Shown piece by piece: positions 1,668 to 49,638 of a stretch of 64,000 bases of DNA. A program made the translations under genes and the position numbers. How positions within the stretch are numbered: position 1 is the stretch's first letter; each line of letters opens with the position of its first letter. Origin of the DNA: Rhodothermus marinus DSM 4252 (GTDB lineage Bacteria > Bacteroidota > Rhodothermia > Rhodothermales > Rhodothermaceae); contig NC_013501.1 of the NCBI RefSeq assembly GCF_000024845.1, forward strand, positions 2,646,874 to 2,710,873. The letters are read 5' to 3'. The notes beneath the pieces are model-generated. The model searched no databases and was not told the origin of the DNA. It saw only the letters and a program-made list of their open reading frames with translations.

Positions 1668-2876
1668 TTACCAGTTGAACATGGTGCCGTCTTCCTTGCG
1701 GTTGACGGGCAGATAGGCGCGCTCGTACGGATAGCGCGCCGCCAGCTCCTCGTTGAAGTCCACGCCCAGCCCCGGCGCATCGCCCGGATGCAGGTAGCCA
1801 TCCTGGAAGTAGTAGGCATGCGGGAAGACCTCGTCGGTCTCGGGCGTGTGGCGCATGTATTCCTGGATGCCGAAGTTGGGCACCCACAGGTCGAAGTGCA
1901 GCGCGGCCGCCATCGTGATGGGCGACAGGTCCGTCGCCCCGTGGAAGCCCGTGCGCACGTGGTAGAGTTCGGCCAGCGCCGCCACTTTGCGCATGTGCGT
2001 GATGCCGCCGCCGCGCAGGACGGACGTCCGCAGATAGTCGATGAGCTGCTCGGTGATGAGCAGGTGCGCGTCGTAGATCGAATTGAACACCTCCCCGACG
2101 GCCAGCGGCGTGGTGGTGTGCTGGCGAATCCACCGGAAGCTCTCCTGCAGCTCGGCCGGCACCGGGTCTTCGAGCCAGAACAGATGGTAGGGCTCCAGCT
2201 CTTTACCCAGGCGGGCCGCCTCGATGGGCGTCAGCCGGTGGTGGACGTCGTGCAGCAGGTGCACGTCGTCGCCGTAGACGTCGCGCAGGCGCTGGAAGAG
2301 TTTGGGAATGAAGTTCAGATACTTTTCGGTGGACCAGATGTGTTCGGGCGGCAGGCCCTTTTCGGCGGGCTCGTAGAAGAGCTTTCCGCGCCCGACTCCG
2401 TAGGTGGTGGGCAGGCCCGGGATGCCGCATTGCGCCCGCACGGCCTTGTAGCCCATCTCCAGGTAGCGGCCCACCTCATCGACGACCTCTTCGATGTCGC
2501 CGCCGCTGGCGTGGCCGTAGACCATCACGCCGTAGCGGCTGGGCCCGCCCAGCAGGTTGTAAACGGGCGTGTTCAGCGCCTTGCCCTTGATGTCCCAGAG
2601 CGCCATATCGACGGCCGCGATGGCGCTCATCGTGACCGGACCGCGCCGCCAGTAGGCCCCTTTGTACAGGTACTGCCAGATGTCTTCGATCTGGAACGGA
2701 TCGCGGCCGATCAGGCAGGGAATCACATGTTCTTCGAGATAGGCGACGACGGCCATTTCCCGGCCGTTCAGCGTGGCATCGCCCAGCCCGTAGATGCCTT
2801 CGTCCGTGTAGAGCTTCAGCGTAACGAAGTTGCGGCCGGGCGAGCAGACGAACACCTTTCCGTCGGTGATCTTCAT
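1668..2876 (-). CDS. manD: D-mannonate dehydratase, enolase superfamily (ManD/RspA type)
   Basis: Dehydrates D-mannonate to 2-keto-3-deoxygluconate. At 402 residues the protein has the length I recall for characterised ManD enzymes. The catalytic positions fall in register: R147, Y159, D210, H212, E236 and E262, with a further histidine at 312 in a GFHG motif. D210, E236 and E262 are the Mg ligands of the enolase barrel. The Y159 loop separates ManD from other mandelate-racemase-group members. It sits between the TRAP transporter genes and eda/kdgK. This is the enolase-superfamily enzyme, not the unrelated UxuA. Some RspA-type proteins are catalytically poor, but here the operon gives a complete downstream route. 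Confidence 0.93.
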
Positions 2877-2906
2877 AGATGACTTACTTCTGTTAGCGGT
2901 TGATGG

Positions 2907-4208
2907 TTATTCGAGGTATCCAAAGACACGAGGCAGCCAGAGGCTCAGCTCCGGCAGGTACGTCACCAGCAGCAGTGCGATGATCATCGCCGCGTACATG
3001 GGCAAGAGCGAGCGCAGCACGCGCGTCATGGGCGTCTGCGTCACGCCCAGTCCCACGAACAGCACGGTCCCCACGGGCGGCGTGCAGAGTCCGATGCAGA
3101 GATTGAGCACCAGGATGATCCCGAAGTGAATGGGATCGATGCCCAGGTTCAGCGCCACCGGCAGAAAGATCGGGGTGAAAATCAGCACGGCGGGCGTCAT
3201 GTCCATGAACGTCCCGACGGCCAGCAGCACGAAGTTGATGATCAGCAGAATCAGGATCTTGTTGTCGGTCAGGGCCAGCAGCGCCTGGCTGACGCCCTGG
3301 GGAATCTGCTCGTAGGCCAGGATCCACGACATGGCCATCGAGGTGGCGATGAGCAGCAGCACGATGGCGGTCGTGGAAGAAGCTTCGAGCAGCACGCGGG
3401 GTAGATCCCGCAGCCGCAACTCGCGGTAGAGCAGCGCCAGAATCAGCGCGTAGAGCACGGCCACGGCGGCAGCCTCGGTGGCTGTGAAGATGCCCGCGAT
3501 GATGCCGCCGATCACGATCACCAGCAGCAGCAGGCTGGGGGCAGCGTCCCAGAACGTGCTCCATAGACGGCGGAGGCTGGGCCGACCGGCCACCGGGTAG
3601 CGCCGCTTCCAGGCGATCCAGCCGGCCACCAGCATGAGCATCAGACCGACAAGAATGCCCGGGATGTAGCCCGCCAGAAACAGCGCGGCGATCGACGTAC
3701 CGCCCGAGGCCAGCGAATAGACGATCAGGATGTTGCTGGGTGGAATGAGCAGGCCGGTGGTGGCCGAGGTGACGTTGACCGCCACACTGTAGCCCTTGTC
3801 ATATCCCTCGCGCTCCATGTGCGGCGCCATGATGCTGCCGATGGCCGAGGCGGCGGCCGCCGCCGAACCCGAGATCGCTCCGAAGAGCATGGCCGCCAGG
3901 ATGTTCACGTGCGCCAGCGCCCCCGGCAGCATACCCAGCGCCGCTTCGGCGAAGTTCACCAGTCGCCGGGCAATGCCGCCCCGGTTCATCAGATGCCCCG
4001 CCAGAATGAAAAACGGAATGGCCAGCAGCGTGAACGAATCGAGTCCGGTGGCGATGCGCTGCGCCTCGGTGGTCAGCGCCGGGGCCAGCGGCATGCTCGG
4101 CAGCATGGTCAGGATCGTGGCCAGCCCGATGCAGACCGCGATCGGCACACCCAGCAGCAACAGCACCGCAAAGGAGACGACCAGAATCAGGACGGCGATC
4201 CACTCCAT
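2907..4208 (-). CDS. dctM: TRAP transporter large permease subunit (DctM)
   Basis: Large membrane subunit of a sodium-driven tripartite transporter. It forms the transport channel with DctQ and receives substrate from DctP. The 433 residues are almost entirely hydrophobic and predict about 12 helices. It contains the family features AGHLMNRGGIARRL near residue 70, GSAAAAASAIGSIM, and PP-containing re-entrant segments (TGLLIPPSN, GLCTPPVG). It lies 12 bases after dctQ and 30 before manD. Given the catabolic genes downstream, the substrate is probably a hexuronate (glucuronate, mannuronate or a related sugar acid). The transporter family is certain; the substrate is inferred. Confidence 0.95.
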   Translation of the reverse strand: MEWIAVLILVVSFAVLLLLGVPIAVCIGLATILTMLPSMPLAPALTTEAQRIATGLDSFTLLAIPFFILAGHLMNRGGIARRLVNFAEAALGMLPGALAHVNILAAMLFGAISGSAAAAASAIGSIMAPHMEREGYDKGYSVAVNVTSATTGLLIPPSNILIVYSLASGGTSIAALFLAGYIPGILVGLMLMLVAGWIAWKRRYPVAGRPSLRRLWSTFWDAAPSLLLLVIVIGGIIAGIFTATEAAAVAVLYALILALLYRELRLRDLPRVLLEASSTTAIVLLLIATSMAMSWILAYEQIPQGVSQALLALTDNKILILLIINFVLLAVGTFMDMTPAVLIFTPIFLPVALNLGIDPIHFGIILVLNLCIGLCTPPVGTVLFVGLGVTQTPMTRVLRSLLPMYAAMIIALLLVTYLPELSLWLPRVFGYLE

Positions 4209-42604: not shown

Positions 42605-45600
42605 TCAGCGCACCCGGACCAACCGGCCCGAGAACACCTCGTGCGTACCGCCGGGCGACGCTACCAGCACCCGGTACACGTACATGCCGGCGGCCAGGTC
42701 GTCCACTTCCAGCTGCAGGCGCCGTGCCCGTCCTGCTTCCAGCCGCGAGCGCGGCACGCGCCGCACCAGCCGCCCCAGCATATCGTACACCTCCACCGCC
42801 ACCTGCGACGAAGCCGGAAGGTCCAGCAGCAACTCCACGACGCCCGCACGCACCGGGTTGGGATAGTGCCCGTGGAAGGCGATGCGATCGGGCAACCCTC
42901 CCTCCGTCGCGGTCAGTTGGCCCCGCACCAGCACCAGCGGCACCGCCGGACCCACCACTTCGCGCACATCGCCGCCCTCGACGCGGCTGCTGTCGGTGGC
43001 GACTACGCGGTGGTACAACCGCTGCTGCTGTCCCGGCGCCGTGCCCAGCGAATCCAGCAGATCAGCCAGTTCCCGATAGGAGAGACCAACCACGGTATCC
43101 CGTCCGGTCACGCGGCGGCGAAGTACCTGCGCAAACAGCGAGTCGTGGGCCAGCTCCCAGCGGTAATAGACCGGATCGCCGTCCGGGTCACGCACGCCCC
43201 ACCAGACAATCTGTAACGTATCCGTGGGCTCCCCGGCAATCTGCACCGCTTCCCACACCACAGGAAGTTCCAGGGCCGGCGGCGACGGCAAACTGTTCTT
43301 TCGAACCAGCTCCAGCCGCCGTGCCGCGCCCAACACCTCCGTATGACCATCGCTGACCACCACCCGGTGGTACAACGCCAACCGCTCCCCTACACCCAGA
43401 CCCACCGAATCCGCCAGCGACCAAAGCTCCGATGGCAACACCACCACCAACGTGTCCCCCGTCTCCACTCGACGCCAAACCCGAGCAAAATCCCCCTCCG
43501 GCGACAACTCCCACCTGTACCGCAACGCATCGCCATCAGCGTCCCACGACGCACCCCACACCACACGCAACGTGTCGCCACCTCCTGCACCAACCTCCAG
43601 CACCGATCCGTCGGCCGGCTCCAGCATCTCCGCCAACGCCGGCACACTGTTTTCAATCTGCAGGAACAATGGCTGGGCGGTCCCTGCAACTTCCGCCCGC
43701 TTTCCTCCGGCCAGCATGGTGCTGTCCCACACGACGACGCAATGGGCCAGCCAGCGTCCTTCTCCCACCGATACACCCAGCGAATCCAGCAGGGCGATCA
43801 ATTCCTGATGCGAAACGGCGACCGAAGTGTCGGTCCCCACCCACACGCGGCGGTACACGTGCTGCATCGACGTATCCCCCAGTTCCCAGCGATAGACCAG
43901 GACGTCGCCATCGGCATCCGTTGCAGGCGGCCAGCTTACCCACAGCGTATCGAGCACGCTTCGGCTCAGACGCAGGGTGTCGCCGGAAACCGGCCTGACC
44001 GGCGCCACGGCGACGGGAAGATGCAGCAGCTCCTGCGGAAGGAACTCCAGCGCGCCGATGTCGCACCGCGGCGTGCCGTCTTCGTCGCCATCCTGCGGCC
44101 GCTCCACCCCCCGAAGGTCCTCGGTCGGACACACACTGTCGTCTCCCGCATCCAGCGCCGGACTGTCGGCAATAAGCCGGTAAATACCCGTCGAGTCGTC
44201 CGTCACCACCAGACGCGCATCACGCCCTATGACGTTGCCATTCTGCCCGTCCTGAAGGCCGCAGGCGCTGGCAACATCTTGGATCACGTTATTTGATGAG
44301 CTTAAATCAAGCACACCCATACAATCTTTACCAACATTATTAGCAAACAAACTATTATTTAATGCAATAAAACTATCAACACTGTACAATCCTCCACCTT
44401 GATCAGCATTATTATGAATAAGAGAAAGATTATTCCATTCTACAAAATTGCTTTCTTTGACATAGATTGCTCCACCACTAGATACAGCTTTATTATTAAA
44501 AAGGATAATATTTTTAGCAATACTTCCATTCGATTTATAAATATACATCCCACCACCATCATATCTGGCCATATTATTGTACACATATACATTAAAAAAC
44601 TGAGGATCTCCGTTATTTACGTATATACCCCCACCATAATCAGCAACATTGTTAGCAATAACAACGTTGTATAAGATTGGATCTGACCCAGATATAGTGA
44701 TCCCACCGCCTCTACTATATTGCCCAGAATATTGTTGATATTTAGGACCCACAACGTGAGCTATTATAGAATTGCTTACAACAGCTTCGCTCCCAAAAAT
44801 CTTAATCCCTGATATACCTCCAAACACATAAACGCTATCTACAACGACAGAACTTTCCTCGAAAACAATCCCGGATTCATTAATAACAGCATTTTTTACC
44901 ACAAGATTTGATCTATAAACATCAATCCCCCACCCATATTCAATTTCAATATTCAAAATTGAACACTCTTTACACCCCCTCATAAAAATATTTCTTCCTT
45001 TATTGTGTACAAATTTACTATTTAATATATCCATATAACCGTACACTAATGAGAAAAACAAAGCATCCTTTTCGTTTTGAACAAAATAAACGTCATCTAT
45101 AGATAGATATGCCTCGTAACCATCAACATATATTCCAGCCCCAACATTTGATATATTTTTTTCAATAATAACACTATAAAACCTACTAAAACCTCCACTA
45201 CTATTCACATAAACACCTCCTCCTATCCCAGATTTGTTACTATAGATATTGCTATTTTTAATTTCAATATTGCTATTATACACACAAATTCCCCCTCCTT
45301 TTTGATCAGACATATTGAATTCAATTTGCAAATTATACAAAAAAACATTGCTTGATGAAAGTATATAAAAGCCTCCCCCACAATTATCAGAAATATCAGA
45401 AGCTATTCCTCCACTAATTTTAAATCCATCTAATACTAAAGAATCAGCTACGACATAAACAACGTGCAAGGAATTATTTCCACGGAGAAGTTCATATTTT
45501 CCATCCCCATCCGCATCGATATCATTCTGATCCAGATCTCCGCTCAGCACCGTCGGGTTGGCTTCCCAGTCGCGCTGGGAGCGGTCGGTTTCGGTGCCGG

Positions 45601-45898
45601 CGAAGCCGCCATAGATGGCCACGCCGCTTTTCATCTGGAACGACAGCGTCCGGTCGTTGTCCGTCAGCCCGGTGCCCTCGTCGGGGTAGTACACCCCCGC
45701 CGCCACCCAGATTTCATCGCCTGCCTGCGCCGCCGCCAGCGCATCCTGGAGCGACGTGTAGGCATCGGCCCAGGAACTGCCATCGTTGGCCCCCGTCGCG
45801 TCTTTTTTCACGTAGATGATCCGCTGCGCCTGAGCGCTCGTGCCCAAAAGCAATGCCACCATCAGCCCGGTGGCCAGACCTCGTAGCATGCGTACCAT
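42605..45898 (-). CDS. Large secreted beta-helix protein with type IX sorting domain and AT-rich core
   Basis: About 1097 residues from the ATG at 45898, which has AGGG 7 bases upstream. A signal peptide ends near SAQAQ. Residues about 25-120 (IIYVKKDATGANDGSSWADAY) are the polymorphic outer-membrane/parallel beta-helix start. Residues about 123-540 are beta-helix repeats (GGGIYV, GGGMYI) rich in N, I, S and Y. Three homologous Ig-like units of about 110 residues follow (each with D-DGD---YRWEL). The last 90 residues are a Por/type IX C-terminal sorting domain (NPVRAG...VYDMLGRLVRR). The DNA for residues 123-540 is AT-rich, unlike the rest. It is probably a surface or secreted adhesin-like protein. 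Confidence 0.88.
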   Translation of the reverse strand: MVRMLRGLATGLMVALLLGTSAQAQRIIYVKKDATGANDGSSWADAYTSLQDALAAAQAGDEIWVAAGVYYPDEGTGLTDNDRTLSFQMKSGVAIYGGFAGTETDRSQRDWEANPTVLSGDLDQNDIDADGDGKYELLRGNNSLHVVYVVADSLVLDGFKISGGIASDISDNCGGGFYILSSSNVFLYNLQIEFNMSDQKGGGICVYNSNIEIKNSNIYSNKSGIGGGVYVNSSGGFSRFYSVIIEKNISNVGAGIYVDGYEAYLSIDDVYFVQNEKDALFFSLVYGYMDILNSKFVHNKGRNIFMRGCKECSILNIEIEYGWGIDVYRSNLVVKNAVINESGIVFEESSVVVDSVYVFGGISGIKIFGSEAVVSNSIIAHVVGPKYQQYSGQYSRGGGITISGSDPILYNVVIANNVADYGGGIYVNNGDPQFFNVYVYNNMARYDGGGMYIYKSNGSIAKNIILFNNKAVSSGGAIYVKESNFVEWNNLSLIHNNADQGGGLYSVDSFIALNNSLFANNVGKDCMGVLDLSSSNNVIQDVASACGLQDGQNGNVIGRDARLVVTDDSTGIYRLIADSPALDAGDDSVCPTEDLRGVERPQDGDEDGTPRCDIGALEFLPQELLHLPVAVAPVRPVSGDTLRLSRSVLDTLWVSWPPATDADGDVLVYRWELGDTSMQHVYRRVWVGTDTSVAVSHQELIALLDSLGVSVGEGRWLAHCVVVWDSTMLAGGKRAEVAGTAQPLFLQIENSVPALAEMLEPADGSVLEVGAGGGDTLRVVWGASWDADGDALRYRWELSPEGDFARVWRRVETGDTLVVVLPSELWSLADSVGLGVGERLALYHRVVVSDGHTEVLGAARRLELVRKNSLPSPPALELPVVWEAVQIAGEPTDTLQIVWWGVRDPDGDPVYYRWELAHDSLFAQVLRRRVTGRDTVVGLSYRELADLLDSLGTAPGQQQRLYHRVVATDSSRVEGGDVREVVGPAVPLVLVRGQLTATEGGLPDRIAFHGHYPNPVRAGVVELLLDLPASSQVAVEVYDMLGRLVRRVPRSRLEAGRARRLQLEVDDLAAGMYVYRVLVASPGGTHEVFSGRLVRVR
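44275..45535 (-). other. AT-rich segment inside a GC-rich gene
   Basis: By eye this 1.25-kb stretch is roughly one-third GC, while both flanks of the same ORF are close to two-thirds GC. The reading frame is continuous across both borders, near 44275-44300 and 45520-45535. Third codon positions are mostly A or T within it. It codes for the beta-helix repeats. This looks like a domain swap from a low-GC source. Confidence 0.85.
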
Positions 45899-46108
45899 GA
45901 CTGCCCTATCGATTGGTGAACCCATCAGGAAACAAAAGGACCACTCCGCAACCGATCAGCACCTGCTTCCGGGAAGTGCCGGTTTTCCAGACGGGCCCCG
46001 TTCCTCACAACCGCAGAGGCACACCCCGGGGTACTTTCGGAATATATCGGCGATCGTCCGGCAACGCAAGCATCGCCGCCTGCAACGGCATTGCTTCAGA
46101 CCGTATGC

Positions 46109-48832: not shown

Positions 48833-49599
48833 GTAAAGAAACCTTCGCCTTCCCTCCGGAACTGATCGAACGGCTGGCGCGGGCGCGCTCGGTGGCCGTG
48901 CTGACGGGGGCGGGCATCAGCGCCGAAAGTGGCGTGCCGACGTTCCGCGACCCCGGCGGCCTCTGGGAACGCTTTCGCCCCGAGGAACTGGCCAACGTGC
49001 AGGCTTTCCTGCGCAACCCCGATCTCGTGCAGCGCTGGTACGCCTATCGCCGCAGGCTCGTGCGCGAAGTGGAGCCCAACCCGGGGCATTATGCGCTGGT
49101 GGAGCTGGAACGCATGGTGCCAGACTTCACGCTCATCACGCAGAACGTGGACAACCTGCACCGCCGGGCCGGGAGCCAGCGCGTCGTGGAACTGCACGGC
49201 AACCTGCTGCGCAGCTACTGCATCGACTGCGGCCGCCCGGCCGACGAAGTGGATCTGGAAGCGGCCGCCGAAGGCAAGCCCGCCCGTTGTCCGACCTGCG
49301 GCGGGCTGATCCGGCCGGACGTGGTCTGGTTCGGCGAAATGCTCCCGGAAGAAGCCCTGGCCGAAGCCTACGCTGCCTGCGAACGGGCCGAGGTGTTTCT
49401 GAGCGTCGGCACCAGCGCCGTGGTTTATCCGGCCGCCGGGCTCCCGCTCGAAGCGAAGCGGGCCGGCGCCTATGTGGCCGAAATCAACCTGCAGCCCAGT
49501 GCCATCGCGGACGAAATGGATGCGCTGCTGCTGGGCAAGGCCGGCGAGATCCTGCCCGCGCTCGTCGCAGCCGTCCGCCAGGCACGCAATGCCGGCTGA
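48829..49599 (+). CDS. cobB: NAD-dependent protein deacylase, sirtuin (class III-like)
   Basis: 256 residues. Motifs are GAGISAESGVPTFRD at 27-41, the catalytic H123 in ELHGNL, TQNVDNLH at 104-111, and zinc cysteines C131, C134, C154 and C157. Y71 and R74 (YAYR) match the pair that marks SIRT5-like class III enzymes removing succinyl and other acidic acyl groups. The ATG overlaps the BatD-like stop. It likely regulates metabolic enzymes; a link with the DUF58 pair may be only positional. Confidence 0.95.
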   Translation: MSKETFAFPPELIERLARARSVAVLTGAGISAESGVPTFRDPGGLWERFRPEELANVQAFLRNPDLVQRWYAYRRRLVREVEPNPGHYALVELERMVPDFTLITQNVDNLHRRAGSQRVVELHGNLLRSYCIDCGRPADEVDLEAAAEGKPARCPTCGGLIRPDVVWFGEMLPEEALAEAYAACERAEVFLSVGTSAVVYPAAGLPLEAKRAGAYVAEINLQPSAIADEMDALLLGKAGEILPALVAAVRQARNAG

Positions 49600-49638
49600 T
49601 ACGATTTTCGGGAAAACATAGTGCATGTGGGAAAGCAA

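What the first reader, a model, noticed from the sequence alone, without database searches (positions are those of the whole stretch)
44275..45535. AT-rich beta-helix domain embedded in a GC-rich gene
The reading frame is unbroken, yet composition drops from about two-thirds GC to about one-third for 1.25 kb, then returns. Only the beta-helix repeats are affected, not the signal peptide, Ig-like repeats or sorting domain. This looks like a recent swap of the exposed domain from a low-GC source, such as a variable adhesin or surface antigen would show.
Basis: seen in the sequence. Interest (0 to 1): 0.8.

Follow-up and report, generated by a model that had tools for sequence, protein, structure and literature searches.

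The report
Swapped core in surface protein gene
A hot-spring bacterium carries a predicted surface-protein gene whose ends match those of a sister strain while its middle is a stretch of very different DNA, which looks like a natural exchange of the working part of a protein with its secretion and anchoring parts kept.

Summary
In the 1106-codon gene at 42605-45925 (-), GC falls from about 0.65 to 0.32 between 44273 and 45500 with the frame open, and third-position GC falls from 0.78 to 0.22. Amino-acid content does not explain it. The genome matches Rhodothermus marinus DSM 4252 in replicon lengths.

The sister strain AA3-38 (named by exact chromosome length) has the same locus with 96-98% identical flanks. 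Identity drops at about 44284 and 45515, within about 20 bases of the GC steps, and a shorter, strongly diverged beta-helix core lies between. The Ig-like block (42887-44044) is also missing there. I read this as replacement of the core by recombination in the conserved end pieces, with DNA of unknown low-GC origin.

Against or open: no donor was found; only two strains were compared; direction and date are unknown; AA3-38's copy has a broken frame; an adhesin or antigen role is untested. One oddity is unexplained: the core has 1 threonine in 407 residues, against 2.7-15.3% in 47 related stretches. It is a clear new example of a known kind, a mosaic surface-protein gene.

The parts
42605..45925 (-). 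whole open reading frame, 1106 aa, predicted T9SS-secreted surface protein
45521..45925 (-). N-terminal module: signal peptide-like start plus conserved domain (residues 1-135), GC3 0.78; in AA3-38 two overlapping pieces at 94% (45469-45792) and 98% (45761-45925) DNA identity
44300..45520 (-). AT-rich beta-helix core (residues 136-542), GC 0.33, GC3 0.22, 1 Thr in 407 aa; a shorter, diverged core stands here in AA3-38
44045..44299 (-). C-cap of the beta-helix, choice-of-anchor Q type (residues 543-627; NF041518 match at 580-628); 92% DNA identity to AA3-38 over 44045-44290
42887..44044 (-). Ig/PKD/SusE-like block (residues 628-1013), normal GC, no DNA match at E <= 0.001 in 6 of 6 other Rhodothermus genomes
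42605..42886 (-). C-terminal T9SS type A sorting domain (residues 1014-1106) with stop; 97% DNA identity to AA3-38 over 42605-42877
44255..44300 (.). border on the C-cap side: DNA identity to AA3-38 in 30-column bins falls from 90-100% to 70% and then 40-60%, GC falls from 0.60 to 0.32
45485..45544 (.). border on the N side: DNA identity to AA3-38 in 30-column bins falls from 93-100% to 70% and then 27-67%, GC falls from 0.70 to 0.37-0.47 within about 90 bases

Best explanation
The gene encodes a cell-surface protein sent out by the type IX secretion system: signal peptide, a conserved N-terminal domain, a right-handed beta-helix core, a conserved cap, Ig-like domains and a sorting tail. In the DSM 4252 lineage (or, seen the other way, in AA3-38) the beta-helix core was replaced, in frame, by a homologous but strongly diverged core from a low-GC organism or element. 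The exchange used the conserved DNA on either side (N domain and cap) as homology arms. Shown: the composition break, the different core in a sister strain, and the coincidence of borders. Inferred: homologous recombination as the mechanism, a low-GC donor, surface display, and that exchange of the exposed part changes what the protein binds or how phages or grazers see the cell.
For: GC steps at 44273 and 45500 with an open frame. Sister-strain locus with 96-98% identical flanks but strongly diverged core DNA; identity steps at about 44284 and 45515. Foreign codon usage. Of 36 N-domain loci that could be measured (40 given, 4 dropped because under 120 core codons could be read), this one has a core-minus-N GC3 of -0.62; the other 35 have mean -0.065, sd 0.094, minimum -0.28. 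The C-side ~140 aa of the two strains' cores are colinear (44-45% identity) and are each other's best hit among 244 class genomes; the N-side 83 aa align at 47%; the middle ~180 aa of the DSM 4252 core have no clear counterpart in the shorter AA3-38 core. That is what replacement of one homologous core by another would leave. The repeats found in 44150-45650 all lie inside the core and none frames it; no inverted repeats. T9SS sorting tail above cut-off and SprA present in the genome.
Against: No donor: no match to the core in plasmids, phages, viral contigs or a pattern-based scan of 84,980 species genomes (these tools may leave out records near the window's own genome); the best relative in 394 phylum and 244 class genomes is AA3-38 itself at 44%. 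Only two strains could be compared. AA3-38's own core is also below its ends (GC 0.474, GC3 0.42-0.50), so direction is open, and its frame is interrupted. Both ends of the two cores still align at 44-47% protein identity, which divergence in place would also leave. The core is poorer in C and Thr than each of 17 related stretches with GC under 0.46, so it does not look like an ordinary low-GC Bacteroidota gene. Surface location and binding are untested.
Confidence: 0.76

Rival explanations
1. The core is native and AT-rich because beta-helix repeats need A/T-coded residues (Asn, Ile, Tyr, Ser, Lys).
For: The core is rich in Asn, Ile, Tyr and Lys; even with host codons its GC would be 0.53, below the genome mean. 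The 35 relatives show a slight mean GC3 fall of 0.065.
Against: GC3 is 0.22 against 0.80 expected from host codons. Of 21 relatives whose N domain has GC3 of 0.70 or more, 20 have cores with GC3 0.55-0.93 and one 0.44.
Confidence: 0.02
2. The core evolved in place by extreme divergence or hypermutation (for example C-to-T on the coding strand) from an AA3-38-like core.
For: The C-side ~140 aa are colinear with AA3-38's core and best hits of each other, and the N-side 83 aa align at 47%; the coding strand is C-poor (0.091) and Thr is nearly absent.
Against: In the colinear C-side part transversions (121) outnumber transitions (93), and C>T plus G>A make 65 of 214 differences. DNA identity is 51% there against 90-100% in bins a few tens of bases away. 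The DSM 4252 core is also much longer (407 aa against about 225) with an unmatched middle.
Confidence: 0.08
3. The AT-rich core is the older state and AA3-38 took up a new core and lost the Ig-like block; the low GC of the core is then an old import. (Not exclusive of the best explanation, which leaves direction open.)
For: AA3-38's core also has lowered GC (0.474; GC3 0.42-0.50) and a broken frame.
Against: An old import should have drifted towards host composition; GC3 0.22 shows little amelioration. Two strains cannot polarise the change.
Confidence: 0.13
4. The core came in by a mobile element or site-specific cassette system rather than by homologous recombination in the ends.
For: Other low-GC, strain-specific DNA exists in this genome, one stretch around a segment with similar places elsewhere.
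Against: No repeats of 14 bases or more that frame the core, no phage or plasmid match, in-frame domain exchange between conserved ends.
Confidence: 0.04

Closest known systems
Mosaic surface-protein genes made by intragenic recombination (spA of Staphylococcus aureus, PMC4940709; variation of bacterial antigens, PMC4534519; both seen only in a search listing)
   Same: Conserved secretion/anchoring parts with an exchanged exposed part; sharp identity borders inside one gene (general features recalled).
   Different: Free-living thermophile; composition contrast of over 30 GC points; only two alleles known.
Low-GC variable surface islands of Salinibacter ruber (order Rhodothermales by recall; PMC2800850, passages read)
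   Same: Low-GC, strain-variable surface genes in a GC-rich relative (56% against 66% GC), which its authors think probably reflects escape from phages.
   Different: Those are whole gene clusters for polysaccharides; here it is one domain inside one gene.
choice-of-anchor Q beta-helix proteins with T9SS sorting domain (NF041518, TIGR04183/PF18962)
   Same: Both end domains match above cut-off.
   Different: Core has foreign composition and almost no threonine.
Chlamydial polymorphic membrane proteins (PF02415 repeat, TIGR01376)
   Same: Beta-helix repeats with GGG motifs; one weak repeat match.
   Different: Below cut-off (20.5 of 20.6 bits for the core alone, 13.8 for the whole protein); T9SS tail in place of an autotransporter barrel (the barrel is recalled, not tested).

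Membership tests
Mosaic gene by intragenic recombination | Same locus in related strains with high-identity flanks and an internal segment of different descent | tested here: met
   Flanks 96-98%, core diverged between about 44284 and 45515; one sister strain only
Mosaic gene by intragenic recombination | Segment differs in composition and codon usage from the rest of the gene | tested here: met
   GC3 0.22 against 0.72-0.87
Mosaic gene by intragenic recombination | Donor lineage with the same segment identified (supporting rather than defining) | tested here: inconclusive
   No donor in any collection searched; an unsampled one is not excluded
T9SS type A cargo (TIGR04183, PF18962) | C-terminal sorting domain above curated cut-off | tested here: met
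   29.6 bits (cut-off 23) and 31.6 bits (cut-off 27)
T9SS type A cargo (TIGR04183, PF18962) | Genome encodes the T9SS translocon SprA | tested here: met
   TIGR04189, 2630.7 bits against a cut-off of 200; 0 of 14 control genomes match
T9SS type A cargo (TIGR04183, PF18962) | Protein is actually secreted and displayed | not testable with these tools
   needs an experiment
choice-of-anchor Q domain protein (NF041518) | Domain above curated cut-off | tested here: met
   42.8 bits, cut-off 25, residues 580-628
Right-handed beta-helix fold | Repeating short strands stacked in rungs | tested here: inconclusive
   Single-sequence model, mean pLDDT 51.8; most 10-residue blocks of the core at 51-80 with regular short strands; many of the listed PDB matches are beta-helix proteins by recall, but none at E <= 0.001
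Chlamydial polymorphic membrane protein | PMP repeats above cut-off | tested here: not met
   PF02415 20.5 of 20.6 bits (core), 13.8 (whole); TIGR01376 14.2 of 15

The most novel reading that the evidence does not exclude
The locus is a standing cassette holder: conserved N domain and cap act as fixed homology handles through which Rhodothermus marinus strains repeatedly take in beta-helix cores (and Ig-like blocks) from other community members, including one low-GC lineage whose coding strands are so poor in cytosine that the imported domain has almost no threonine. Both known alleles would then be imports, since both cores lie below their ends in GC.
Probability: 0.25. Interest if true: 0.6.

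Novelty: new member of a known kind. Interest (0 to 1): 0.42.

Why it matters
It looks like a clean natural domain graft: borders, reading frame and both alleles can be read at base level, in a culturable thermophile of which one strain has been genetically modified (PRI 493; start of the abstract of PMC5822342 seen in the listing). If confirmed, it shows exchange of an exposed domain between conserved ends in a free-living bacterium, away from immune pressure, and makes a testable case for phage or binding selection on T9SS cargo. The near-threonine-free core gives a compositional fingerprint for tracing the donor.

Tried and rejected
Donor searches: viral contigs with the core, genome contigs with the whole protein and with the core (both pattern-based, so only close relatives would be found), plasmids and phages by tblastn, own genome, 7 genus genomes, 244 class genomes, 394 phylum genomes drawn evenly: no donor.

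Paralogue-driven gene conversion inside the genome was rejected: of 33 matches to the whole protein in its own genome, the 32 others cover only residues 948-1106, so the N domain and the core have no second copy at E <= 0.001. Amino-acid composition alone was rejected. C-to-T hypermutation was rejected as the main cause. A mobile element at the borders: no framing repeats seen. Phage tail-fibre origin: best PHROGs match E 0.038, function unknown. Search of solved structures by sequence: only one match, E 0.56.

Threonine: 1 of 407 in the core; the sorting domain, 1 of 93, is low too. In 47 non-identical related stretches (45 after joining those that overlap; own copies left out, 9 duplicates and 3 stretches under 100 aa dropped) Thr ranges 2.7-15.3%, mean 7.3%. 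Six low-GC open frames in the sampled stretches of this genome have coding C 0.113-0.186 and Thr 1.9-6.5%, so part of the shortage may be a property of low-GC imports; the rest is unexplained.

Literature: a six-term search for beta-helix, Bacteroidetes, surface protein, recombination, mosaic, GC content gave 0 papers; the titles and abstract openings listed (10 of 153, 2 of 2 and 11 of 11 papers) name no report of this locus. Only the open-access library was searched.

On re-reading I corrected an overstatement (the N-side 83 aa of the two cores do align) and moved the odds of divergence in place from 0.06 to 0.08 and of the best explanation from 0.78 to 0.76.

Full report
What was checked. 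The finding lies in one open reading frame, 42605-45925 on the minus strand, 1106 codons. A three-segment fit to GC content places steps at 44273 and 45500 with GC 0.667, 0.322 and 0.633. The coordinates in the finding (44275-45535) are right to within a few tens of bases. Third-position GC is 0.78 in the N module, 0.22 in the core, 0.72 in the cap, 0.75 in the Ig-like block and 0.87 in the sorting domain. Writing the same core protein with host codons gives GC3 0.80, never below 0.70 in 2000 trials, so the residues do not force the low GC.

Whose genome. The genome has 3,386,737 bases in two contigs, the larger of 3,261,604. The total equals that of Rhodothermus marinus DSM 4252 in PMC3035238 (passages), and the replicon lengths equal those in PMC6952675 (whole text). 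The unnamed relative G002 lies on a contig of 3,430,829 bases, exactly the chromosome length of R. marinus AA3-38 in PMC6952675, which gives about 95.2% average nucleotide identity to DSM 4252. Both names rest on length alone.

Comparison with the sister strain. In AA3-38 the locus is present with flanks 96-98% identical. Window positions 42605-42877, 44045-44290, 45469-45792 and 45761-45925 align at 92-98% identity; 42878-44044 has no counterpart, and 44290-45469 aligns at DNA level only in scraps. In bins of 30 alignment columns identity falls from 90-100% to 70% at 44255-44284 and from 93-100% to 70% at 45485-45514. These steps fall within about 20 bases of the GC steps. Between them AA3-38 has a 679-base core of GC 0.474 with a 75-base tandem repeat of 3.6 copies, and its reading frame is interrupted in two places, giving three open pieces.

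Relation of the two cores. The C-side 145 aa of the AA3-38 core finds DSM 4252 as best other hit in 244 class genomes (100.8 bits, 45%; next 75.6 bits), and the DSM 4252 core finds AA3-38 best (98.2 bits, 44%; next 51.3). They are colinear over this part. The first 83 aa of the cores align at 47%; about 180 aa in the middle of the DSM 4252 core have no clear counterpart. I therefore read the event as replacement by a homologous, strongly diverged core rather than insertion of an unrelated one. In the C-side part the differences are 93 transitions and 121 transversions, with C>T plus G>A 65 of 214, which speaks against hypermutation in place.

Family context. The N domain is found in 60 of 244 genomes of the class and in 3 of 7 in the genus: DSM 4252, AA3-38 and G006, where only a 76% identical fragment remains. 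Of 40 loci given, 36 could be measured for GC3 of the core against the N domain (4 dropped because under 120 core codons could be read; two of those are AA3-38): DSM 4252 has -0.62, the other 35 have mean -0.065, sd 0.094, minimum -0.28. A few (L076, L132, L140, L083) show a milder fall of 0.23 to 0.28. AA3-38, measured apart, also has a lowered core (GC3 0.42-0.50).

Rarity in the genome. Twenty evenly spaced stretches (399,980 bases, 3800 overlapping 1-kb windows) have mean GC 0.644; 14 windows are at or below 0.33 and all come from one stretch. That stretch holds separate low-GC open frames, one of which matches glycosyltransferase models below their cut-offs. A search with its 4201 bases matches 2 of 7 genus genomes: its own, and G004 only in an inner segment (query 2202-3013) that also has three further similar places in the DSM 4252 chromosome; the low-GC parts have no match in 6 of 6 others. 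One frame at its edge (L115:18027-18890) rises from GC3 0.30 to about 0.7. Low-GC, strain-specific DNA thus occurs elsewhere in this genome, mostly as separate frames.

An unexplained property. The core has one threonine in 407 residues, at residue 410; the N domain has 10 in 135, the cap 4 in 85, the Ig-like block 20 in 386 and the sorting domain 1 in 93. In 47 non-identical related stretches Thr ranges from 2.7% to 15.3%. Coding-strand C is 0.091, lower than in each of 17 related stretches with GC under 0.46 (0.137-0.217). Six other low-GC frames of this genome have C 0.113-0.186 and Thr 1.9-6.5%. A donor with very C-poor coding strands is the simplest guess, but no such donor was found.

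Function. The protein has a T9SS type A sorting tail and a choice-of-anchor Q cap above cut-offs, and the genome has SprA. A single-sequence model shows short regular strands through the core at moderate confidence. Foldseek gave no PDB match at E <= 0.001; many of the weak ones listed (phage tailspikes, PL6 lyases, antigen 43) are beta-helix proteins by recall. Surface display is the natural inference; binding partner and role are unknown. A match to the ComEC-type competence family PF03772 is present, as in 10 of 14 control genomes; it permits but does not show uptake of foreign DNA.

Judgement. The core was exchanged by recombination between conserved ends, 0.76. The composition points to a low-GC source, not identified. 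The adhesin or antigen reading is plausible and untested. In Salinibacter ruber, of the same order by recall, low-GC variable islands encode surface polysaccharides and were thought to reflect escape from phages (PMC2800850, passages); the same pressure could act here.

Noticed in passing
window 42887-44044: The Ig-like block has normal GC but no DNA match at E <= 0.001 in 6 of 6 other Rhodothermus genomes and is absent between cap and sorting tail in AA3-38, so it is a second exchanged or lost module.
   Followed up: partly
window 44300-45520: The 407-residue core has a single threonine; the longest Thr-free run is residues 126-409 (284 aa), unlike the relatives found.
   Followed up: partly
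L115:13900-18100 (G000:C1:1003900-1008100): A low-GC stretch with separate open frames (one matches glycosyltransferase models below cut-off), split by a segment with three further similar places in the chromosome and matches in G004; its low-GC parts have no match in 6 of 6 other Rhodothermus genomes.
   Followed up: partly
L115:18027-18890: A frame at the edge of that low-GC stretch rises from GC3 0.30 to about 0.7, possibly a second composition border inside a gene.
   Followed up: no
L039:1036-3717 (G006:C45): In another Rhodothermus the N domain breaks off after about 120 residues and abuts lower-GC genes, one of them matching the DrmE family of DISARM (NF038316 80.9 of 80 bits).
   Followed up: partly
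L021:1780-2860: The AA3-38 copy has 75-base tandem repeats in its core and three open pieces, so it is either decayed or switched off.
   Followed up: partly
L076, L132, L134 (all G208), L140, L083: Milder GC3 falls (0.19-0.28) from N domain to core in other members of the family, possibly older exchanges.
   Followed up: no
window 49599-49618: AA3-38 has 472 bases (L038:13651-14122) where the window has 18.
   Followed up: no
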